A stretch of 64,000 nucleotides of DNA from Anaerobiospirillum thomasii (lineage in GTDB: Bacteria; Pseudomonadota; Gammaproteobacteria; Enterobacterales; Succinivibrionaceae), in assembly GCF_900445255.1 (NCBI RefSeq), contig NZ_UAPU01000005.1, positions 135,001-199,000 of the forward strand, written 5' to 3'. Positions 1 to 12,923 of this stretch are shown here, piece after piece. Within the stretch, counting starts at the first letter, position 1. Each line of letters starts with the position of its first letter. A model generated the notes under the pieces. That model saw only the letters and a program-made list of their open reading frames with translations, searched no databases and was not told the origin of the DNA. The position numbers and the translations under genes are program-made.

Positions 1-1373
<1,373 letters not shown>

Positions 1374-1620: not shown

Positions 1621-1716
1621 CTGCAACATTACTTTTTAAAGTATTAATTTTTAATTTTGTCCCATTATTGATTTTTATGTCCCAATAATTTATTATCTGA
1701 TAAAAGAGGGGATATC

Positions 1717-2775
1717 ATGAAAAAGCAGTCTATCTTAAATCTCATTCGTTATTACAGTGATAATAATGACATAGGTTTTAAAAAACAAGCTTATGCAATT
1801 GCAGATGAGTTTTCAAAAAATGGTGATGTAGAACTTGCCCAATATATCATGACATTACTCTCTACAACAGGTGTTTTAGTACCTCAATCAACCGATGAGG
1901 AGATTGTATTATCATCTTTTTTTGAAAAGATTAAACCATCATCTGACTCTCTTTTTTTTCCAGATAGCTTAATTCAGGATTTACTGGGAGTTGTAAATGC
2001 TGTTAAAAGAAATATTGGCATACATAAGTTTCTTTTTCACGGAGCCCCTGGTACAGGTAAGACTCAAGGTGTCCAACATTTAGCAAAACTCTTGCGGCGT
2101 GAAACTTACACTATAAATTTCACTAATATTTTAGATTGTAAACTAGGGCAGACTCAAAAAAATATTCAAACTGTATTTAAAGAGATCAATTGCTTCCCTC
2201 AACCTAATAAAATAGTTGTTCTTTTTGATGAAATTGATGCCCTTGCTATGGATAGAATAAATGCAAATGATTTACGTGAAATGGGTAGGGTTACCTCCAC
2301 TTTATTAAAAAATTTTGATACTTTAAATGAGGACATTGTATTAATCGCAACAACTAATTTATTTTCTAATCTAGATAAAGCTTTGATTCGTCGTTTCGAC
2401 TCTACAATTGATTTTAATAGTTACACAAAAGAAGACTTAATAGAAATTGCACAGAGGTTTTTAGATTTTTATTTATCAAAAATAAAGGTATCTAATAAGA
2501 ATATTAGAGTCTTTCGAAAAATTTTGAACTTGTATAGCAAGATACCATATCCAGGTGAGTTAAAAAATGTTATTAAAACAGCAATTGCATTTAGTGATCC
2601 TGATGATGGATATGACTACCTTCGTCGTCTTTATTATGCGGTATGTAATGAAAAGCCAGATAATATAAAAAAATTACAGGAACAATGTTTTACTGTAAGA
2701 GAAATTGAAATTCTAAGCACCAAATCAAAAAGTTCAGTTTCTAGAGAATTAAGGAGTATGCTAGCAAATGCATAA
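1717..2775 (+). CDS. AAA+ ATPase of an IetAS-type defence pair (IetA-like)
   Basis: A 352-residue AAA+ ATPase. An N-terminal helical part of about 100 residues precedes Walker A (GAPGTGKT, residues 109-116) and Walker B (VVLFDEID, about 167-174). A sensor-1 region (ATTN) and an arginine-finger stretch (ALIRRFD) follow, the standard layout of classic AAA proteins. The start has a GAGGGGAT ribosome site upstream. The stop overlaps the start of the subtilase gene by eight bases, so the two are translationally coupled. AAA-ATPase plus subtilisin-like protease is the arrangement of IetA/IetS, first described for Agrobacterium plasmid incompatibility and later reported as an anti-phage system. A defence role here is inferred from that pairing. 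Base composition is more AT-rich than in the core genes, which suggests transfer. Confidence 0.85.
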   Translation: MKKQSILNLIRYYSDNNDIGFKKQAYAIADEFSKNGDVELAQYIMTLLSTTGVLVPQSTDEEIVLSSFFEKIKPSSDSLFFPDSLIQDLLGVVNAVKRNIGIHKFLFHGAPGTGKTQGVQHLAKLLRRETYTINFTNILDCKLGQTQKNIQTVFKEINCFPQPNKIVVLFDEIDALAMDRINANDLREMGRVTSTLLKNFDTLNEDIVLIATTNLFSNLDKALIRRFDSTIDFNSYTKEDLIEIAQRFLDFYLSKIKVSNKNIRVFRKILNLYSKIPYPGELKNVIKTAIAFSDPDDGYDYLRRLYYAVCNEKPDNIKKLQEQCFTVREIEILSTKSKSSVSRELRSMLANA

Positions 2776-5035
2776 TATATTGCAGTTAAAAGGTGATCTA
2801 TCAGCAAAGCCAAACGCATCAAAGCCAGGACCTTTGACCATGAAAAAAGGTCAAACTGTATGTGCTTCGCATTTAGACAAGCTCTCAGCTGACATTGCTG
2901 GCGTTATATCTTATTGGAACACCAAGCAGTCTGTGCTACGAGACGTGTTCATAACTGCTTACCACAACCGAATTGTTCCTAAAAGTAGTAGATTAAGATG
3001 TCTTTTCTCTAGTAATTCAGCGGACAACCCATCTAATTATATGTGTGGAGCCAAGTTTAAGAAGATTGGGGATAAAATGTGTCACGTTTTTACATATTAT
3101 GTTCCTATAAATATTCTAACCAAGGCTCAGAACCTACTTCTTAGAGTAGCACAGATTATAAGAGAAAATTTTGATAGTGGAGTTATAACTTCTGATGAGT
3201 TTAACTCTATAAGTAATAATAGTTTAAAAATTGATATGCAGGATATCTCAAAAAGTACATTTTTAAAAGTACTGCTTGATGTAACCTGTATAGATATTTT
3301 TACAGTAGAAGAAGGCTCTATGCTTACTGCTGAGGATGTACTAGTTACCATTTATAAAACAGAAGTAGGAATTAAAGAACTTCTATCCAATTTAAAAATA
3401 AATATTTTAGATGATAAAATTTTTAACGATACAACTTGTAAGTTATCTCAGAGAGAATACTCCAAACTTGTAGAAAGTGCACCATATTTAATTGCAATGA
3501 GTATATCTGATTTCGTCAGATTGACAGATGACTATCTGGCAGATCAATCAAATGAAGATCAGATTCAACAAATCCCGTCACCGACAAATGAGCCTATAAT
3601 AGGAGTGATTGATACACAATTTAATAAAGAAGTATATTTTAGTGAATGGGTAGAGTATATAAACTTGCTTGATCCAAATGTAGCATTATCCGAGAAAGAT
3701 TATATTCACGGTACAGCAGTCTCTTCTATAATTGTAGATGGTCCAAAAGGAAATAAAGACTATGAAGATAATTGCGGTAGGTTTAGAGTAAAGCACTTTG
3801 GTGTTGCGGTTTCAAATGGATTTAGTTCCTTTTCTGTGTTAAAGCATATTCGCAAGATAGTAGAAGAAAATAGTCATATTAAGGTTTGGAATTTGTCATT
3901 AGGATCAGTTGATGAAATACATGAAAATTATATTTCTCCAGAGGGGGCAGAGTTAGATAAAATACAAAATGAATTTGATGTTATTTTCATTGTAGCTGGA
4001 ACAAATCAAACAGATGCTATGCAAAAGAGAATTGGAGCTCCAGCTGATTCTTTAAACTCTATAGTTGTCAATTCTGTAAACTCTAAGGGACAGTGTGCAT
4101 CATACACAAGGACAGGACCTGTTCTTTCTTTTTTTTATAAGCCTGATGTAAGTTATTATGGAGGAGAAAGTGTTTCAGAACGAAAACCAATGGTTGTTTG
4201 CTACAATAATTTGGGAGCTGTAACAAGAGTTGGAACTTCATTTGCTGCACCATGGATAGCAAGAAAAGTAGCATTCTTGATTTATAAAATGGGTTTATCT
4301 CGCGAGTTAGCTAAAGCACTTATTATTGATTCTGCTGCACAATGGAGCAGGAAAGATGATATAAGCTTTAGTAAAGGCTATGGAGTTGTTCCTAAAAAAA
4401 TTGAAGAAATTGTTCAAACAAGAAACGATGAGATACGATTTCTTATTTCAGGAAGAGCTGAGGAGTATACAACATATAACTATAATTTGCCTGTACCTTT
4501 TGAAGGAAATGGTCACCCATTTTATTCAAGATTAACATTAGTATATTTTCCTGAGTGTAATAGAAATCAAGGAGTAGACTATACCACTACAGAACTTGAT
4601 ATTAATTTTGGAAGGGTAAAGCATAATGTTTATAATGGTTCAATGAAAGTCGATATTGTATCAATAAATGGAAATCCTCAAAATGGTGATGGGGCTGAAA
4701 AATTATATGAAGAGGAAGCTAGAACTCTTTATAGAAAATGGGATAATGTAAAATTTATCTGTGAAGAGATAAAAAAAATAAAAAAACCAAAGAAAAAATA
4801 TACTGAACATGGATCTTGGGGTATTAAAATCACATCTAAAGAGCGAAATTCTAGCAAGGAAAAGCATCCATTAAATTTTGGGCTTGTTATAACTTTAAGA
4901 GAAATGAATGGTAAGGACAGATATCATGATTTTATTCAGCTCTGTCAGTCACGAGGATGGCTTGTTAATGAACTCAACATTGATAATCAACTTAATATTT
5001 ACGCTCAATCTCAAATTGAAATTGACTTGGAATAG
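2768..5035 (+). CDS. Subtilisin-like serine protease of an IetAS-type pair (IetS-like)
   Basis: A 755-residue protein with an S8 (subtilase) domain in its centre. The three catalytic motifs are present in order: Asp282 in GVIDTQF, His314 in IHGTAVSS and Ser491 in GTSFAAPW. About 270 residues of unrecognised sequence precede the protease domain and about 200 follow it, with a lysine-rich stretch near residues 670-690. No signal peptide is seen, so the enzyme is probably cytoplasmic and controlled by the coupled ATPase. The long N- and C-terminal parts may be sensor or substrate domains. Protease assignment is firm; the defence role follows from the ATPase partner. Confidence 0.85.
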   Translation: MHNILQLKGDLSAKPNASKPGPLTMKKGQTVCASHLDKLSADIAGVISYWNTKQSVLRDVFITAYHNRIVPKSSRLRCLFSSNSADNPSNYMCGAKFKKIGDKMCHVFTYYVPINILTKAQNLLLRVAQIIRENFDSGVITSDEFNSISNNSLKIDMQDISKSTFLKVLLDVTCIDIFTVEEGSMLTAEDVLVTIYKTEVGIKELLSNLKINILDDKIFNDTTCKLSQREYSKLVESAPYLIAMSISDFVRLTDDYLADQSNEDQIQQIPSPTNEPIIGVIDTQFNKEVYFSEWVEYINLLDPNVALSEKDYIHGTAVSSIIVDGPKGNKDYEDNCGRFRVKHFGVAVSNGFSSFSVLKHIRKIVEENSHIKVWNLSLGSVDEIHENYISPEGAELDKIQNEFDVIFIVAGTNQTDAMQKRIGAPADSLNSIVVNSVNSKGQCASYTRTGPVLSFFYKPDVSYYGGESVSERKPMVVCYNNLGAVTRVGTSFAAPWIARKVAFLIYKMGLSRELAKALIIDSAAQWSRKDDISFSKGYGVVPKKIEEIVQTRNDEIRFLISGRAEEYTTYNYNLPVPFEGNGHPFYSRLTLVYFPECNRNQGVDYTTTELDINFGRVKHNVYNGSMKVDIVSINGNPQNGDGAEKLYEEEARTLYRKWDNVKFICEEIKKIKKPKKKYTEHGSWGIKITSKERNSSKEKHPLNFGLVITLREMNGKDRYHDFIQLCQSRGWLVNELNIDNQLNIYAQSQIEIDLE

Positions 5036-5090: not shown

Positions 5091-7050
5091 TATGGCGAAA
5101 TTATAAGAATGTGTCACATCACATTTAATTTCAGCCGATTATTAAAAATATGAGTCTACCTCATATGTAGTTCTTTAAAAATTTATCAAACCACTATTTT
5201 TTGTCCAATAGATGTCCAAAAGCCGACTTTATTGGTGATTGGGATATATTTAGGGATATGGCTTTACCACTGAGCAGCAGTGGTTGATGTTGTGTATGGA
5301 CTTATTCAGAGTGTCCAAAGAACTCAATCAGACGATGCAGAGTATAATCAAGAGGTCTGCTTCTGAATTTTTCAGCAATACTCTTAAAGGTAGGTGGGCG
5401 TCCTGAGTTATCGGTATTAGCGCTATTCCTTATAAAGGAGTGGATGTTGTGCACTATTTTATTTATGCCCACATGGTTGGCAATTAAATTATCGTTGCAT
5501 GACTGTAGGTCGTCCTGGGCTAAAGAGCCACAGTCAAGGTGTCCATGATGGTAAGTCTCAATTGCCCAGTACTCATCAATACTCCGCGCAATCTGATGTA
5601 GTGTTGATTCTTCACCATACTGCAGAGAGCTTATATAGTATCGGGTGTTAGATGTGCTGCTAACCTCTTTACCATTAATGATTTTTGATGTCGCCTTGGT
5701 ATACATCACGATAGTGTTGATATTAGCGTATAAGCCTCTGACCTCATCGCTAAGAAGAGAGCCGTCCAATATGGATATCTCAATCTTTTCTTTGCGAGAG
5801 TGCCCTGTTTCTTGCCTACTTACAGTTAAAGCATCCTTAGCCAGCGATGAGGAAAATATCTCAGATAACGCCGCATTTAGCTTTTTCCTGATATTCTTTT
5901 TGATTGGCAGAAGATAATCGCAACCTTTCTGAGTTATAAGCTTTGCAATATATGGCGTGCTGTTAAGAGCATCAGCCATAATTACCGCATCTTTTATTTC
6001 AGTGGTCGAGAACATCTGAATAAAGGCAAGGCCTTCGTTATTTTTCTTGTTCGTCAGATAGTAGTCTAAGGCCAGCTTTTCAGTGCAGTTATATAGAGTA
6101 ACAGCAATCTTCTTTTTCCTGCGACTCTGCTCTCCTTTAACAAACGTGCTTATCAGCTCCTGTCCATCAAAGGCTAGAGTATTTTTTATTGGAAGTACAA
6201 TTCTTTCACTGTTTTTAGCCTCTTCTGGCGTATTCATGGCTTTTGTTACAGCGCGAGGTATTACACCAAAGAACTCAGTAAAAAACTTACTCATTTGCTC
6301 CTGATCAACCATACGTAAAACTCTGTTTACACTGGCAGGAGACAAAGAATGTTCAGGATCAGGCATACCATCGATTAGTGCGTGTAGCTGAAGATAATTT
6401 TGATTATAAAATTCAGCAATCTCATTTGCATCGGTTCGCCCCTGCAATTTTGCAAACAGTATGACACACAACACAACGTCCAAGGTATAGACCAGAGAGT
6501 TTTCACTTCGTGTATCTATAAAGAGCCTTCTGATTTTTTGCTGAAAATTAAGAATTTGATCGAGCTTTGATGATTTAAGTCTCTTAAGCATTTTTTGCAA
6601 GGACAAAAATTCAATCTCAATGTCATCTTCAAGCTTCTCTATTTCATAATCAATATCAAATTGATTTTTAGAGAATTTATTAAGAGTCTGATTAATACGC
6701 CTATTTCTGTATTTTTCTTCAAAGGACAATGATGCCTTAGGTATAGCAGATCTGGAACGCGATCTCGCTACAACATCTTGTAATCCCTGTGAAACCTGAA
6801 ATACAGTCATAAAAACCAAAACGAAAGTTAAACTTTCATTATTTGATCAGAATCACGAAAATAGCACAAGCTATTTTATTGAAGTTTGATCCTTAGCTCA
6901 CAAAAATATTTAAAATGAGATTTATAGCAAAAAACCAATAGTGGTTAGATAGATTTTTAAAGAGCTACATAATCAGGGTAGACCTGATTAAATTTTAACT
7001 ATGGCCTTATTATAAAATGTGATGTGACACATTCCCGTAATTTCGCCATA
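5091..7050 (-). mobile_element. Complete ISAs1-family insertion sequence, about 1.96 kb
   Basis: The element carries one transposase gene between imperfect inverted ends. The outer ends read TATGGCGAAATTA on both sides, followed after three variable bases by GAATGTGTCACATCACATTT. Weaker mirrored similarity, for example TGTAGYTCTTTAAAAATYTAT, continues about 120 bases inward on each side. A near-perfect nine-base direct repeat flanks the element. It sits just behind the subtilase gene, between that gene and a transposase remnant. Both ends and the gene look intact, so the element could still be active. It is longer than usual for ISAs1 members. Confidence 0.8.
5302..6810 (-). CDS. ISAs1-family DDE transposase
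   Basis: About 502 residues from the ATG at 6810; an upstream TTG in frame is less likely. After a charged helical N-terminal extension of about 100 residues comes an ISAs1-type associated domain (DTRSENSLVYTLDVVLCVIL). A DDE catalytic core follows, with motifs LAFDGQEL (first Asp), VIMADAL (second Asp) and YWAIETYHHGHLD (Glu), and the C-terminal part ends with the N-x2-ANHVGINKI segment typical of the family. ISAs1 transposases are usually near 370-430 residues, so the extra length is mostly N-terminal. No frameshift or stop is seen. Confidence 0.88.
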   Translation of the reverse strand: MTVFQVSQGLQDVVARSRSRSAIPKASLSFEEKYRNRRINQTLNKFSKNQFDIDYEIEKLEDDIEIEFLSLQKMLKRLKSSKLDQILNFQQKIRRLFIDTRSENSLVYTLDVVLCVILFAKLQGRTDANEIAEFYNQNYLQLHALIDGMPDPEHSLSPASVNRVLRMVDQEQMSKFFTEFFGVIPRAVTKAMNTPEEAKNSERIVLPIKNTLAFDGQELISTFVKGEQSRRKKKIAVTLYNCTEKLALDYYLTNKKNNEGLAFIQMFSTTEIKDAVIMADALNSTPYIAKLITQKGCDYLLPIKKNIRKKLNAALSEIFSSSLAKDALTVSRQETGHSRKEKIEISILDGSLLSDEVRGLYANINTIVMYTKATSKIINGKEVSSTSNTRYYISSLQYGEESTLHQIARSIDEYWAIETYHHGHLDCGSLAQDDLQSCNDNLIANHVGINKIVHNIHSFIRNSANTDNSGRPPTFKSIAEKFRSRPLDYTLHRLIEFFGHSE

Positions 7051-7184: not shown

Positions 7185-7847
7185 ACAACTGACAATACTA
7201 AAGGCTTTATACACCTTTATTATGACTCTCTTAAGTATCCTGAAGCACTTGCCACCTTGCAACTGGCTGTAAAACATGAAAAAGAACTGATAGATAAGGC
7301 CAAAACTAGTGGCATACATCTTAGTAAGGCGCAGGTTGCTAAAATGACAAAGTTTCATGATGCTCAAATAGATGCACAGAAGGCTATAGGCTAGACATTT
7401 ACCTATAATCCTGATAAGTTTTCAAGGGCTAAAAGTCTTATAGGCTGGTTTGTTCTGTTTACTTGTAATGAAGATATAGATAGCGAGCAGGCATTGAAGA
7501 TATATAGCATGAAGGACTCTGTAGAAAAGATATTTGATGCTTTAAAACATGATCTTGACTGTAAGCGACTTAAGACCCATAGATCAGACACATCTAACGG
7601 TAAGCTCTTTGTTATATTTATAGCTCTTATTTTGCACACATGTGCAAGTAAGGCATTGAGAGCTCTTAAAAATGATGAACCTAATCGCTTTAGAAAATTG
7701 ACTTACAAAGGTCTTATAGATGAACTTGATGATATTACCATTGAGAAAAAAGGTGATAAGTTTACCCTGTCCAAGGCTTTAACTTTTACACAAAAAGAGA
7801 TCCTGAAGGCTTTAGACGTTGATCTGTCACAATTTGAATTGGTATAG
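7185..7847 (+). pseudogene. Remnant of an IS4/IS1634-like transposase (C-terminal part)
   Basis: One reading frame continues through an in-frame TAG at 7392-7394. Before the stop it reads like the middle of an IS1634-type transposase (GFIHLYYDSLKYPEAL...). After it comes the C-terminal DDE region with SLIGWFVLFTCNEDID, YSMKDSVEKIFDALKHDL and GKLFVIFIALIL, where Glu of VEKIF is the probable third catalytic residue. The first catalytic half is absent. The same C-terminal pattern (GKFFILFIALVI) occurs in the complete IS1634-like transposase further along the window, so this is an older, decayed relative. Confidence 0.75.
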
Positions 7848-8038: not shown

Positions 8039-10012
8039 ATGTCAGATCACAACTCAAATCTCATCGATCGTCCAAAATCTGGCGATGAGGCAGATCTATT
8101 AGGTGTTAATCGCTATATAAAAGCACTTTCCAATTTTTTAAGTCATGCCAGCATGCCTACTACTATAGCCATTCAAGGTGAATGGGGCAGTGGTAAGACC
8201 TCAGTAATTAATTCTCTTCTCTACGAACTTTGTGATACTGCAAAAGCTCCGGATAAAAACAAGGTATTTCATGGAATATTCCTTAATATGTGGGAGTATT
8301 CACTACTGCGCACCCCTGAGGAGTCAATTGAGTCAATTATTCGCGGTTTGCTAAAACAGGTATCGCTTTTTATCGAGTTACACGATCGCTCCAATCCTGC
8401 CGTTGATGCCCTTAAGAAAATCTCCAAGTCACGTCTGTTTAAAGCTGCTCTGACCGGTGGTAAGGTAGCAACCTCACTAGCAGGGGCTAGTGCTGTTAAT
8501 TTTGCAGTCGATAAGATAGGTGAAATGTTAAATGGAGAAAGTGAGGAAGAAGAATTTAATCCGGCCGAATTTCGTGAGCAGGTTGCAAGATCTATAGATG
8601 AGTGTCTGCGTTTAGATCGCGAGGATGGAGATCAAAATAAGCGTGGTTTTATGATCTTTGTTGATGATCTTGATCGCATCAATCCAGAGTCAGCAGTTCA
8701 GATCCTTGAGATGCTTAAGAACTTCTTTGAGGTTAACTGCTGTATTTTTGTTCTGGCCATTGACTATAATGTTGTTGTTAAGGGACTTAAGGCAAAGCTT
8801 GGTAATAAAGATGAAAATGATGAGCGTGCATATCGTTCATTCTTTGACAAGATTATTCAGATGCCTTTTACAATGCCTACAGAGCGCTACAAAGTTGGCG
8901 ATTACATTGGTGCATCACTCAAAAAGATTGGCTATTGCTCTGAGGAAGATCTGCATGTTAAGGTAATTGACAAGGAAGGTGAGGAAAATGATCGCACCTA
9001 CATACAGGCAGTAGCTGAAATTACAGCTAATAGTACAGGTAGTAATCCTCGCTCAATCAAACGCCTGCTTAATACTCTTTCCTTGCTGCAATATATGTAT
9101 GAGCAGGATAGTGCTGACAGTGAAAATTTCAATTCATCAGCCAAGACTTATGTAGAGCAAGTCATCAATTATGCATTTGTCTGCATACAGATTGCATATC
9201 CAGAGGTATACAGACTTCTTGCTAAAGAGCCAGTTTATACAAGATGGGATCGCGATACGGCTGATGAATTTAAGATAAATAGCTTTGATACTTTCTACAC
9301 ATCCTGGTGCAAGAGTAATGATCATGAAGAAGATGCTCCAAATGAAAAGCTCTATCAGGCCATTATAACTGCCTATTGCAGGCAGGGCTCTACCTGGCTG
9401 CAAAATAGAGTAAGCTCCATCATTAATATCCTAGTTATGATAGAGGAACTCTGTTCTCTAAATAAAAAAGATTTTGATCTAATCATTCCTGCAATTATTG
9501 ATATGTCATCTGTTACAGCTGTCAACACAGAGGATGATAAGAAGGTTAAAGTCACACTTACCAAGGGTCGTCAGACCTTGCTAGACTTCTGGGTCAAGTT
9601 CCAGGATACTGCGTTTGAAAATGAAGAGTTTGCTCAGCTGTTTAGAAGACGTAAGCCACCAACCGATTACTGGCTGAACTTCTTTACAGGTAATGGCAGC
9701 TGTAAGATCAGCGTGTCTAACTCACTGCAAAAGGGTGAGGTATGTATATACGTAAGTATTTCAAGCCGTGAGATTTTCAATCTTACCTTAGAGCACAAGG
9801 ATGAGATTCTAGCTCAGGTTGGCGAGCCATTTCAGTGGGTATCATTTGATGATGTTTCAGCCTCTGGCGGAAAGGGAAAGACTGCCTTTATTCGCATTTA
9901 TGTGAAAAAAGATCTTAATAATCGTGATGCCTGGTATGAGGCCTCACAATGGATTGCAGCCACCATGGTTTCAATGCGCAAGGCTCTTTCTCCATACATT
10001 GACAAGAAATAG
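8039..10012 (+). CDS. KAP-family P-loop NTPase with DUF4268-like C-terminus
   Basis: A 657-residue protein. Walker A is GEWGSGKT (residues 47-54). A moderately hydrophobic stretch lies near residues 140-170, where KAP proteins often carry an insert. Walker B is FMIFVDDLDR near residues 204-213. This is the KAP (Kidins220/ARMS, PifA) signature; bacterial members include phage-exclusion proteins. The last 150 residues (TLLDFWVKF ... PPTDYWLNFF ... VGEPFQWVSFDD ... WIAATM) resemble DUF4268, a domain found at the C-terminus of restriction-like proteins. Start codon is supported by AAGGAGATAT. It stands alone, with a terminator behind it. NTPase assignment is firm; DUF4268 and the defence role are inferences. 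Confidence 0.8.
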   Translation: MSDHNSNLIDRPKSGDEADLLGVNRYIKALSNFLSHASMPTTIAIQGEWGSGKTSVINSLLYELCDTAKAPDKNKVFHGIFLNMWEYSLLRTPEESIESIIRGLLKQVSLFIELHDRSNPAVDALKKISKSRLFKAALTGGKVATSLAGASAVNFAVDKIGEMLNGESEEEEFNPAEFREQVARSIDECLRLDREDGDQNKRGFMIFVDDLDRINPESAVQILEMLKNFFEVNCCIFVLAIDYNVVVKGLKAKLGNKDENDERAYRSFFDKIIQMPFTMPTERYKVGDYIGASLKKIGYCSEEDLHVKVIDKEGEENDRTYIQAVAEITANSTGSNPRSIKRLLNTLSLLQYMYEQDSADSENFNSSAKTYVEQVINYAFVCIQIAYPEVYRLLAKEPVYTRWDRDTADEFKINSFDTFYTSWCKSNDHEEDAPNEKLYQAIITAYCRQGSTWLQNRVSSIINILVMIEELCSLNKKDFDLIIPAIIDMSSVTAVNTEDDKKVKVTLTKGRQTLLDFWVKFQDTAFENEEFAQLFRRRKPPTDYWLNFFTGNGSCKISVSNSLQKGEVCIYVSISSREIFNLTLEHKDEILAQVGEPFQWVSFDDVSASGGKGKTAFIRIYVKKDLNNRDAWYEASQWIAATMVSMRKALSPYIDKK

Positions 10013-10454: not shown

Positions 10455-12923
10455 ATGTTAAAGTTTTTTGCGTCATGTCCTTTAGGCCTTGAGGGGCTGT
10501 TATTTAATGAAATTGTAAGTCTTAATATAGCCAAGGCCAAAGAGACAACAGCAGGTGTCTCATTTGAAGGCACTATGGAAGATGGCATGAGATTATGCCT
10601 GTACTCCCATTTTGCCTCACGTATTTTACTTACCTTATCCACCTTTAACTGTGAGGATGATACCGATCTGTATCTTGGCGCCAACGGTATTGCCTGGGAA
10701 AATTACTTTACATCAGATAAAACTATCTCTGTTGAGTTTTCAGGTACCAATGACAAACTGCGCAATACACAGTACTCAGCTTTAAAGATTAAAGATGCCA
10801 TCTGTGACAGACTGGTCAAAGCCTATGGCAGCCGTCCTGATGTAGATAAGCACAACTCTGATGTACGTATTTATGCCCACCTTCTAAAATACGGTGAGGC
10901 CACCATTACTTTAGATTTAAGCGGCTCTCCTTTACATCAAAGAGAGTATCACCGCGGTACAGGTATTGCTCCTTTAAAGGAAAATCTGGCAGCTGCCATG
11001 GTGGTAAGAGCAGGTTATGACAATTTTAACTTTATAGATCCAATGTGCGGCTCAGGTACACTGCTTTTAGAGGCCGCTCTGTATGCTACAGATACAGCCC
11101 CGGGCCTTAAACGCAGTCGCTTTGGCTTTTTACATCTTAAAGATTTTGATGAGAACAAATGGCAGGAAATGCTCTTTGAGGCCAAGGTCAGATCAAACAG
11201 AGGCCTTAAAAGCGCTCTTGAGAAAAATATCTGCATACATGGCTTTGATGCTGACTCAAATATGGTATCAATTGCGCAGCAGAATGCTAAAAAGGCAGGC
11301 TTTGGTGATCTTATAAAAGTTTCAGCCTGCTCAGTTGCAAAGATGTACAATCCTTTTGACAATGATCTGCATGTCACCTTAGTTACCAATCCGCCATATG
11401 GTCAGAGAATGGGTAACTTCAATGAGCTTATTGCTCTTTACAGCGATCTTGGTCTTAAGATCAAGCAGAATTTCAAAGGCTCAAGAGCTGCCATTATCTC
11501 AACCTCAACAGACTTGCTCTCATGTCTGCGTCTGTCATATGACAAGAGCTACAAGCTCTATAACGGCTCGCTTTTATGTCAGTTAAGAGTATTTGAAATT
11601 GATGACAGCCGCGATATGGCAGGATCAGAGGGTTCAGCAAAAGATGAAATTGCTGTAGATTTTGCCAACCGTCTTGTCAAAAATCTAAAGACACTGAACA
11701 AGTGGGCTGAGGGTGTCAATACTGATGCCTATCGTGTCTATGATGCCGATCTGCCAGATTATCAGGCCTGTATTGATAAATACGGTCCATACTATGTAAT
11801 TCAGGAGTATGCAGCTCCATCATCTGTCTCTGCCAATATTGCAAGACGCCGTGTGCTTGATATGATTGCCGCCACCATAAGAGTGACAGGCTCTGATGGT
11901 GAACATGTGGTGCTAAAAGAGCGTGAAAGACAAAGAGGTAGCAGTCAGTATGAAAAATCTCAACAGCAAAAGCATGACTTTTTTAGTGTGCATGAGGGCA
12001 GCATCAACTACAGAGTCAATGTACATGACTACCTTGATACAGGACTGTTTTTAGATGCAAGGCCTATACGTGAAAAAATCAAGGCCTTAGCCTCTGGCAA
12101 GGATTTTTTAAATCTCTTTGCCTATACAGCATCTGCCTCTGTGGCTGCCGCCATGGGCGGTGCTTTGAGCACTGTATCTGTTGATATGAGCCGCACCTAT
12201 CTTGAGTGGGGTATGGAGAACTTCAGGCAGAACAATATTGATCTTGCCTCCCATGATTTTGTGCAGGCTGACTGTCTTGCCTATATTTCAAATCCTACAG
12301 ATAAGAAGTACGATTTAATCTATATAGATCCGCCAACCTTCTCAAACTCCAAGCGTATGGAGTCAACCTTTGAGGTGCAGCGTGATCATGTGGCTCTTTT
12401 ATCCAACCTTACAGGTCATCTAAAAGATGGCGGCAGTATTATTTTCTGCACCAACAAGCGCAATTTCAATATTGACGGTAAGAAGCTTGCCCTCTATGGC
12501 CTTGAGTTTGAGGATATTTCAAAGGCTACCATTCCACGAGATTTTATGCGCAGACAGCAGATTCACTCCTGCTATATTCTTGCCTTTGATGAGTCTAAAA
12601 AGCAGCTTGATCCTGTGCCTATTGTTGAGCAGAAGGCTGTTCCTAAGTGGTCTGGATCTGTTAAAAAGAGCAGTTATAGCAGCTCATCTTTTGACAGAAA
12701 CTCAGATAGAGGCTCTGACCGAGGCTTTAACAGAGATAACAAAGATAGAGACTTTAACTCACGCAGCAGCGCCTATGGCGGCAGACAGAACAGATCAAAG
12801 GGCTTTAAGGTAGGCTCCATGACCTTTAATAAAGATGGCAGAATCAATTCTGATTCACGCTCTGACAGATCTGAGCGTCGTCCTGCCCGCAAGGCACGCG
12901 TCTGGGGCCCTGTTGACAGTTAG
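10455..12923 (+). CDS. rlmL: Bifunctional 23S rRNA methyltransferase RlmKL
   Basis: Methylates 23S rRNA at G2445 (m2G) and G2069 (m7G) during large-subunit assembly. The N-terminal THUMP region is followed by the first Rossmann methyltransferase (IDPMCGSGTLLLEAAL, then the catalytic NPPYGQRMG near residue 312). The second methyltransferase has LNLFAYTASASVAA and IDPPTFSNSKRM near residues 620-632. E. coli RlmKL has 702 residues; this one has 822. The extra part is a C-terminal tail from about residue 715, rich in Ser, Arg, Asp, Gly and Asn and probably disordered. First gene of a tight run with uup (nine bases away), rnm and ydfG. Confidence 0.95.
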   Translation: MLKFFASCPLGLEGLLFNEIVSLNIAKAKETTAGVSFEGTMEDGMRLCLYSHFASRILLTLSTFNCEDDTDLYLGANGIAWENYFTSDKTISVEFSGTNDKLRNTQYSALKIKDAICDRLVKAYGSRPDVDKHNSDVRIYAHLLKYGEATITLDLSGSPLHQREYHRGTGIAPLKENLAAAMVVRAGYDNFNFIDPMCGSGTLLLEAALYATDTAPGLKRSRFGFLHLKDFDENKWQEMLFEAKVRSNRGLKSALEKNICIHGFDADSNMVSIAQQNAKKAGFGDLIKVSACSVAKMYNPFDNDLHVTLVTNPPYGQRMGNFNELIALYSDLGLKIKQNFKGSRAAIISTSTDLLSCLRLSYDKSYKLYNGSLLCQLRVFEIDDSRDMAGSEGSAKDEIAVDFANRLVKNLKTLNKWAEGVNTDAYRVYDADLPDYQACIDKYGPYYVIQEYAAPSSVSANIARRRVLDMIAATIRVTGSDGEHVVLKERERQRGSSQYEKSQQQKHDFFSVHEGSINYRVNVHDYLDTGLFLDARPIREKIKALASGKDFLNLFAYTASASVAAAMGGALSTVSVDMSRTYLEWGMENFRQNNIDLASHDFVQADCLAYISNPTDKKYDLIYIDPPTFSNSKRMESTFEVQRDHVALLSNLTGHLKDGGSIIFCTNKRNFNIDGKKLALYGLEFEDISKATIPRDFMRRQQIHSCYILAFDESKKQLDPVPIVEQKAVPKWSGSVKKSSYSSSSFDRNSDRGSDRGFNRDNKDRDFNSRSSAYGGRQNRSKGFKVGSMTFNKDGRINSDSRSDRSERRPARKARVWGPVDS

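What the first reader, a model, noticed from the sequence alone, without database searches (positions are those of the whole stretch)
1717..5035. IetAS-type ATPase/subtilase pair directly behind an rRNA operon
The sequence shows an intact AAA+ ATPase and an S8 protease with a full Asp/His/Ser triad, overlapping by eight bases. This gene pair matches IetA/IetS, known from plasmid incompatibility and reported as an anti-phage system. The protease has about 270 N-terminal and 200 C-terminal residues of unknown function that may sense infection. It begins about 100 bases behind the rrn terminator.
Basis: partly seen in the sequence, partly recalled or inferred. Interest (0 to 1): 0.6.

Follow-up and report, generated by a model that had tools for sequence, protein, structure and literature searches.

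The report
Protease-ATPase defence pair with own switch
A bacterium carries a two-gene antiviral-type system, a protein-cutting enzyme and an ATP-driven partner; the partner appears to carry a DNA-binding tail that fits a repeated DNA sign sitting across the pair's own promoter, a sign kept in distant bacteria, which suggests how such a dangerous protease is kept off.

Summary
In detail: ietA 1717-2775 and ietS 2768-5035 overlap by 8 nt, with intact AAA+ and S8 catalytic residues, 101 nt behind the rrn terminator. The pair belongs to the IetAS family (PADLOC hits, profile matches over nearly full length), but to a divergent clade far below NCBI's IteA/IteS cut-offs. Relatives are mostly Clostridia, the tree suggests repeated transfer, and near neighbours match many more defence models than far ones.

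New here: (1) IetA seems to end in a helix-turn-helix. (2) A direct repeat, TGTCCCA-n13/14-TGTCCCA, brackets the -35 box of ietA: found in 83 of 90 distinct upstream regions (shuffles 0.04 on average; other genes 1 of 1,079), and once, exactly, in the host genome. Three IetAs with a diverged tail lack it. So IetA is probably antitoxin and autorepressor in one. (3) In the predicted fold, IetS 187-265 superposes on a subtilisin propeptide and about 555-712 on the C-terminal domain of KP-43-like proteases.

Best model: an autorepressed toxin-antitoxin-like protease, freed when infection disturbs IetA. Binding, toxicity and trigger are inferred. Known family; I saw no report of the switch, but the founding paper was not available. 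New variant of a known kind.

The parts
1658..1684 (+). Putative IetA operator: direct repeats TGTCCCA at 1658-1664 and 1678-1684 (period 20)
   Evidence: Like pairs in 83 of 90 distinct ietA upstream regions vs 0.04 in shuffles and 1 of 1,079 regions of other genes; only exact site in the host genome
1668..1696 (+). Promoter-like: -35 TTGATT 1668-1673, 17-nt spacer, -10 TATTAT 1691-1696
   Evidence: 9 of 12 matches; such matches are no rarer in shuffles of the region; a -35-like hexamer (4 of 6 or better) between the half-sites in 79 of 83 loci, a -10-like one after it in 58 of 83 (no shuffle control)
1717..2775 (+). ietA: AAA+ ATPase, 352 aa
   Evidence: Pfam AAA, PADLOC IetA 2.1e-37, AF2 model pLDDT 85.9
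2665..2769 (+). Helix-turn-helix-like tail of IetA, residues 317-351
   Evidence: Three helices in the model; weak HTH matches of other family members in Pfam; aligned by hhalign to the tail of classical IteA
2768..5035 (+). ietS: S8 subtilase, 755 aa
   Evidence: Pfam S8, PADLOC IetS 6.7e-71, triad D282/H314/S491 invariant
2768..3325 (+). IetS N-terminal region, residues 1-186, no assigned fold
   Evidence: Alignable within the clade and, with low confidence, to classical IteS; no Pfam match at its cut-off
3326..3562 (+). Propeptide-like domain of IetS, residues 187-265
   Evidence: VIA-align to pro-subtilisin E 3whi_A, Z 24.2, rmsd 3.8, 316 aligned, model 187..550; not seen by sequence
3587..4387 (+). 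Subtilisin catalytic domain, about residues 274-540
4430..4903 (+). C-terminal beta domain, about residues 555-712
   Evidence: VIA-align to SubHal 5fax_A and KP-43 1wmd, Z 26, model 274..710; that this part of those proteases is a beta-jelly-roll is recalled

Best explanation
A divergent, horizontally moving clade of the IetAS family. IetS is an intracellular subtilase and the toxic effector, probably held in check by a propeptide-like domain in cis and by IetA in trans. IetA is an AAA+ ATPase antitoxin that also represses the operon: its C-terminal HTH binds two TGTCCCA direct repeats, one just upstream of the -35 box and one in the spacer between -35 and -10, and so shuts out RNA polymerase. 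When an infecting phage or a competing replicon engages or depletes IetA, the promoter is derepressed and IetS is freed, proteins are cut and the cell stops before the phage is finished. Shown by sequence: genes, motifs, family kinship, the conserved repeat and its place, and its absence where the tail has diverged. Inferred: binding of IetA to the repeat, repression, toxicity of this IetS, the trigger and abortive infection.
For: Family: PADLOC IetA 2.1e-37 and IetS 6.7e-71; hhalign to four classical pairs: IetS probability 100 over 644 columns, IetA 99.9 over 330 columns including the tail. Operator: 83 of 90 distinct regions, shuffles 0.04, other genes 1 of 1,079; -35-like hexamer between the halves in 79 of 83; the 40 nt before it are near background identity, 0.345 against 0.318, which suggests selection on the repeat. 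Dedicated: one exact site in the own genome; in 40 other host genomes 29 exact sites (26 genomes; 14 have none), 25 of them identical to strings upstream of ietA, against 5 for the reversed pattern. Tail and operator go together: L040, L042 and L043, with a diverged tail, have neither a pair nor an exact half-site in 200 nt. Homologues: SGI1 S025 (SgiT) is toxic to E. coli and S026 (SgiA) prevents it (PMC5006074, passages); phage replication proteins are said to activate ietAS (PMC10732053, one passage). Defence neighbours.
Against: No binding or infection data. Pfam HTH matches are weak (best 2e-4, of other members) and the window's own tail has none. L087, L117 and L122 keep the tail but have only one clear half-site; L008 keeps it with a doubtful site; L008, L071, L081 and L102 have no exact half-site although they keep the tail. 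Five classical upstream regions show no similar repeat. The propeptide reading rests on a predicted structure only (negative). SGI1 sgiAT under its own promoter gave no post-segregational killing, and its authors suggest positive activation (PMC5006074).
Confidence: 0.6

Rival explanations
1. A mobile-element maintenance (addiction/incompatibility) module that happens to sit on the chromosome; antiphage action is secondary or absent.
For: The founders were found as stabilisers of a Ti plasmid (title of Yamamoto 2009, seen in a reference list) and of SGI1 (PMC5006074). Full-length relatives occur on Macrococcus and Carnobacterium plasmids. An autoregulated operon suits an addiction module.
Against: Genes next to relatives in genome contigs match many defence models; plasmid genes were not counted, so this is one-sided. 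In the host genome the pair sits between an rrn operon and core-like genes.
Confidence: 0.2
2. The TGTCCCA repeat is bound by another regulator, and IetA's tail serves only oligomerisation or contact with IetS.
For: No binding data; tail matches to HTH models are weak; one viral contig (L317) has a like site with no ietAS in the 2,484 bases held of its 35.9 kb.
Against: Exact sites are about one per genome and mostly at ietA, in records titled as several phyla, which a host regulator with a regulon would hardly give; absence goes with tail divergence.
Confidence: 0.15
3. A protein-quality-control pair: IetA unfolds substrates and feeds them to IetS, as an ATP-dependent protease with a housekeeping role.
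For: IetA's AAA+ module resembles proteasomal ATPases, FtsH, Vps4 and NVL.
Against: Patchy presence (9 of 56 family genomes, own included), scattered tree, defence neighbours; a homologous ATPase acts as antitoxin (PMC5006074).
Confidence: 0.05

Closest known systems
IetAS of Agrobacterium pTiC58 and the antiphage IteA/IteS of NCBIfam
   Same: Gene order, AAA+ plus S8 subtilase; homology over almost the full length to four classical pairs; classical IteA tails also look HTH-like by eye
   Different: 20-25% identity in the profile alignments; NCBIfam scores 109.9 of 510 and 181 of 900 bits; a TGTCCCA-like repeat was not seen upstream of five classical ietA genes. The pTiC58 pair itself was not fetched
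SgiAT of Salmonella genomic island 1
   Same: AAA+ antitoxin and subtilisin-like toxin in one operon (PMC5006074, passages)
   Different: Its authors suggest that it needs positive activation; here the layout predicts autorepression. Its sequence was not compared here
ProN-Tk-SP, pro-subtilisin E, KP-43 and SubHal subtilases
   Same: Propeptide-like, catalytic and C-terminal beta parts in the same order in the model
   Different: Those are secreted proteases (recalled); IetS has an extra N-terminal region of about 186 residues and an AAA+ partner
Type II toxin-antitoxin operons with DNA-binding antitoxins (for example MazEF; recalled, one title seen)
   Same: Antitoxin gene first, antitoxin with a putative DNA-binding domain, repeat over the operon's promoter
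   Different: Antitoxin is an AAA+ ATPase and the toxin a large serine protease

Membership tests
IetAS (PADLOC) | IetA and IetS profile matches in adjacent genes | tested here: met
   PDLC02196 2.1e-37, PDLC02197 6.7e-71
IetAS (PADLOC) | Homology over the whole protein, not only the AAA+ and S8 cores | tested here: met
   hhalign IetS columns 31-730 of 752, IetA 44-384 of 387; confidence is low in parts of the IetS N-terminus
IteA/IteS (NCBIfam NF042959, NF042956) | Score above the curated equivalog cut-off | tested here: not met
   109.9 vs 510 and 181 vs 900 bits
IetAS | Intact catalytic residues of both proteins | tested here: met
IetAS | IetS toxic, IetA neutralises it | not testable with these tools
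   Reported for SgiAT (PMC5006074, passages)
IetAS | Protects against phage | not testable with these tools
   PMC11878078 reports an association with resistance and failed to obtain the ietAS lysogen (passages); NCBI names the models anti-phage; direct protection in the 2020 screen is recalled
Autoregulated toxin-antitoxin operon | DNA-binding domain in the antitoxin | tested here: inconclusive
   Three-helix tail in the model, weak HTH matches for part of 52 members, none for the window's own; no fold search of the tail alone
Autoregulated toxin-antitoxin operon | Conserved operator-like repeat over the operon promoter | tested here: met
   that it is bound was not tested

The most novel reading that the evidence does not exclude
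IetA is a promoter-bound AAA+ guard: a ring whose HTH tails sit on two same-face direct repeats over its own -35 box, so that one protein counts both its own level and the presence of foreign replication or transcription machinery. Remodelling or titration of this complex is the trigger that both derepresses the operon and frees the protease; the same switch would explain incompatibility, as a second replicon with the operator would draw IetA away. This would be a DNA-anchored AAA+ antitoxin class, conserved with its operator across phyla.
Probability: 0.25. Interest if true: 0.78.

Novelty: new variant of a known kind. Interest (0 to 1): 0.55.

Why it matters
[quoted passage not shown] A widely conserved repeat tied to a DNA-binding-like tail of the AAA+ partner gives a concrete, cheap test (gel shift, reporter) and could link two facts that stood apart: plasmid incompatibility and antiphage defence. 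The Clostridia-rich clade also widens the range of the system and gives a sequence sign by which diverged members can be found.

Tried and rejected
Empty-site test at rrn/rlmKL: fetched 14 rlmKL stretches of relatives. No rRNA in the 13 given to Rfam nor in the 14 by blastn; the same-genus genome has a flagellin-like reading frame upstream, by eye. Several stretches end close to rlmKL. No empty site could be defined.

The strict pattern with -35 gave one contig, L317, with no ietAS in the 2,484 bases held. blastn of one 56-base operator region found one poor plasmid match and no phage match, a weak search for AT-rich DNA. So the titration idea has no direct support.

Classical IetA operators: five upstream regions, no exact 8-mer direct repeat except an AT-rich one in L046; inconclusive.

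Propeptide by sequence: 27 members against Pfam and a profile against PDB sequences, no inhibitor family.

A fifth or more of the VIA rows span only 262-701 of IetS and 61-312 of IetA.

Class-wide PADLOC search: 104 of 369 genomes ring, and so do 5 of 14 control genomes; most hits are short matches of low score to S8 proteins, so it was not used for prevalence. Of 15 loci L011-L028 whose ATPase was printed, 14 lack an HTH-like tail by eye (L013 has one) and may be another ATPase-subtilase system.

Full report
OBSERVATION. The two genes are there as described: 1717-2775 (352 aa) and 2768-5035 (755 aa), 8-nt overlap. The end of an rrn operon precedes them with a hairpin at 1584-1615. The key catalytic residues are intact and invariant in the clade alignments.

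SURROUNDINGS. Between 5S (ends 1573) and rlmKL (10455-12923) lie about 8.9 kb: ietAS, an ISAs1-family transposase (5302-6819, minus strand; above its NCBIfam cut-off) inside inverted repeats 5091-5129/7012-7050, a short ORF like the end of an IS1634 transposase (7494-7847; below its cut-off) and a KAP-family NTPase with DUF4268 (8039-10012) that also matches PifA, QatA and candidate defence models. Genes that look like core genes follow.

FAMILY. PADLOC calls the pair IetA (2.1e-37) and IetS (6.7e-71). NCBIfam's IteA and IteS models match with 109.9 of 510 and 181 of 900 bits. Comparison of the clade profiles with four classical pairs (L187 and L188 annotated iteS, L188 also iteA) gives probability 100 over 644 columns for IetS and 99.9 over 330 columns for IetA, at 20 and 25% identity. 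In the tree of 95 IetS rows the four classical rows are split from the other 91 by a very long branch (long-branch and composition warnings apply). So it is a member of the family in the wide sense, in a divergent clade.

DISTRIBUTION. 9 of 56 genomes of the host family match, own included: eight over nearly the full length, one (G022) as a 55-residue remnant; the other genome of the genus does not. In genome contigs 379 stretches encode a relative; the best 80 were kept, mostly titled Clostridia or Lachnospiraceae, many from gut samples by their titles, with single records titled Sumerlaeota, Verrucomicrobia, Alphaproteobacteria, Mollicutes, Gastranaerophilales and Methanobrevibacter (several are bins, which may hold foreign contigs). 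Copies of the host family fall in at least four places of the tree: window with L002, L057 nested among Lachnospiraceae, L004 as sister of a mostly Lachnospiraceae group, L005 with L006. This speaks for repeated transfer. Relatives at 41-42% lie on Macrococcus and Carnobacterium plasmids, and in a Mesomycoplasma hyorhinis record next to methyltransferase and helicase genes; two short unannotated phage-collection scaffolds hold relatives too, and a classical pair sits in a record annotated with Rac prophage genes.

NEIGHBOURS. From loci L048-L126 (without six partial or duplicate ones) I listed 255 genes, up to two on each side of the pair, and 109 genes more than 7 kb away. I scanned 114 of the 255 (every second one, the end of that list cut, one large protein dropped) and 107 of the 109. 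At E 1e-15 the near set matches 149 PADLOC models, among the 25 shown DolA and DolB, CBASS-type cyclase, DpdF, PtuA, AbiLi, TIR-NLR, PsyrT and methyltransferases; the far set matches four, AbiLi and Vsr among them. Models are redundant, so this is no gene count, but the contrast is strong. The Pfam scans of both sets show many ordinary genes too. In seven loci of the host family 34 neighbours match 39 models, some of them general ATPase or methylase models.

TAIL OF IetA. The model (mean pLDDT 85.9) ends in three helices, 317-322, 327-334 and 338-351, the layout of a helix-turn-helix. Of 52 tails scanned at E 0.1, up to 16 match a given HTH-type family of Pfam, best 2e-4; the window's own tail matches none. 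hhalign carries the alignment with classical IteA through this tail, and five classical tails look alike by eye. This is fair but not strong evidence for DNA binding.

OPERATOR. Upstream of ietA lies TGTCCCA-n13-TGTCCCA (1658-1684). I collected 94 upstream regions, 90 distinct. Both half-sites (at most one mismatch each; period 20 in 64, 21 in 19; both exact in 51) occur in 83 of 90; 50 rounds of dinucleotide shuffles of all 90 gave 0.04 on average, at most 1; 1 of 1,079 upstream regions of other genes in the same loci has a pair. Misses: L087, L117, L122, L133, L040, L042, L043. For L133 the start had been set too far upstream; with a better start a pair with one mismatch is visible by eye, not counted in the 83. 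L008's match has two mismatches at -135 and may be chance. A -35-like hexamer (4 of 6 or better) lies between the halves in 79 of 83 and a -10-like one follows in 58 of 83 (no shuffle control for this); in the 59 regions of period 20 aligned, TTGACA and TATAAT are the majority letters at these places. In the window -35 is 1668-1673 and -10 1691-1696. The second half-site is thus inside the promoter spacer, as for a repressor. The 40 nt before the operator are near background identity (0.345 against 0.318), so the repeat is not just a relic of recent descent.

ABOUT ONE SITE PER GENOME. In the host genome the exact pattern occurs once, at ietA. In the 56 genomes of the family seven exact matches occur: six at ietA in five genomes (two overlap in G051) and one in G004, which has no IetS match, without a -35. 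In 40 of the 80 other host genomes, 29 exact sites occur in 26 genomes; 14 genomes have none, as their half-sites carry mismatches. 25 of the 29 strings are identical to strings found upstream of ietA; the other four have no -35 between the halves; the reversed pattern as control gives 5. This points to autoregulation, not to a regulon.

CONCORDANCE. In 87 of 90 distinct loci the tail keeps the R of FTxR and K/R-S at the turn. The three with a diverged tail (Macrococcus L040 and L042, Mesomycoplasma L043) have no pair and no exact TGTCCCA in 200 nt. These are about two independent cases; they support, but do not prove, that the tail reads the repeat. Against: L087, L117 and L122 have a good tail and one clear half-site only; L008, L071, L081 and L102 have a good tail and no exact half-site, though L071, L081 and L102 have a well-placed pair with one mismatch in each half.

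PROTEASE. The model of IetS (pLDDT 87.8, pTM 0.90) aligns over 187-550 with unprocessed pro-subtilisin E (3whi_A, Z 24.2, rmsd 3.8, 316 aligned of 355; rows of mature subtilisins align about 240-250) and over 274-710 with SubHal and KP-43 (Z 26). So part of the 'unknown' N-terminus looks like an inhibitory propeptide and the C-terminus like the beta domain of those proteases. Sequence searches do not see the propeptide. Residues 1-186 remain unassigned.

LITERATURE. SGI1 S025 (IetS homologue) is toxic to E. coli in less than 30 min and S026 (IetA homologue) prevents it (PMC5006074, passages). One introduction says that phage replication proteins activate ietAS (PMC10732053, one passage); a review table groups ietAS with such phage proteins (PMC10286901, one passage). 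PMC11878078 says the mechanism is unknown (passages). In the searches that I could run (listings) and the passages read I saw no report of an operator or HTH of IetA; the founding paper of 2009 is not held, so this is no proof of novelty.

VERDICT. Known family, divergent clade, with a regulatory switch that seems new and is directly testable.

Noticed in passing
window 8039-10012: KAP-family NTPase fused to DUF4268, matching PifA, QatA and PDC-S20/PDC-S11 models; a second defence candidate in the same stretch.
   Followed up: partly
window 5091-7050: ISAs1-family element with two nested pairs of long inverted repeats (39 nt outer, 35 nt inner, about 90% complementary).
   Followed up: no
L040 and L042, upstream of ietA: Where the tail has diverged (Macrococcus), an ATATC(A)...TGATAT inverted repeat lies near the place of the operator, by eye; perhaps a replaced operator.
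   Followed up: no
L011, L012, L014-L017, L019-L022, L024, L025, L027, L028: ATPase-subtilase pairs of the wider class whose ATPase has a different N-terminus and no HTH-like tail by eye; maybe a separate system caught by the IetS models.
   Followed up: partly
L099:10037-12100: IetS relative without the first 47 residues and without a detected ietA although 10 kb upstream is held; broken or orphan copy.
   Followed up: no
L009 (G022:C52:21671-21835): A match to only residues 700-754 of IetS: perhaps a remnant of a lost pair in the host family.
   Followed up: no
L005, upstream of ietA (G051:C1:69487-69535): Three exact TGTCCCA half-sites in a row with period 21.
   Followed up: no
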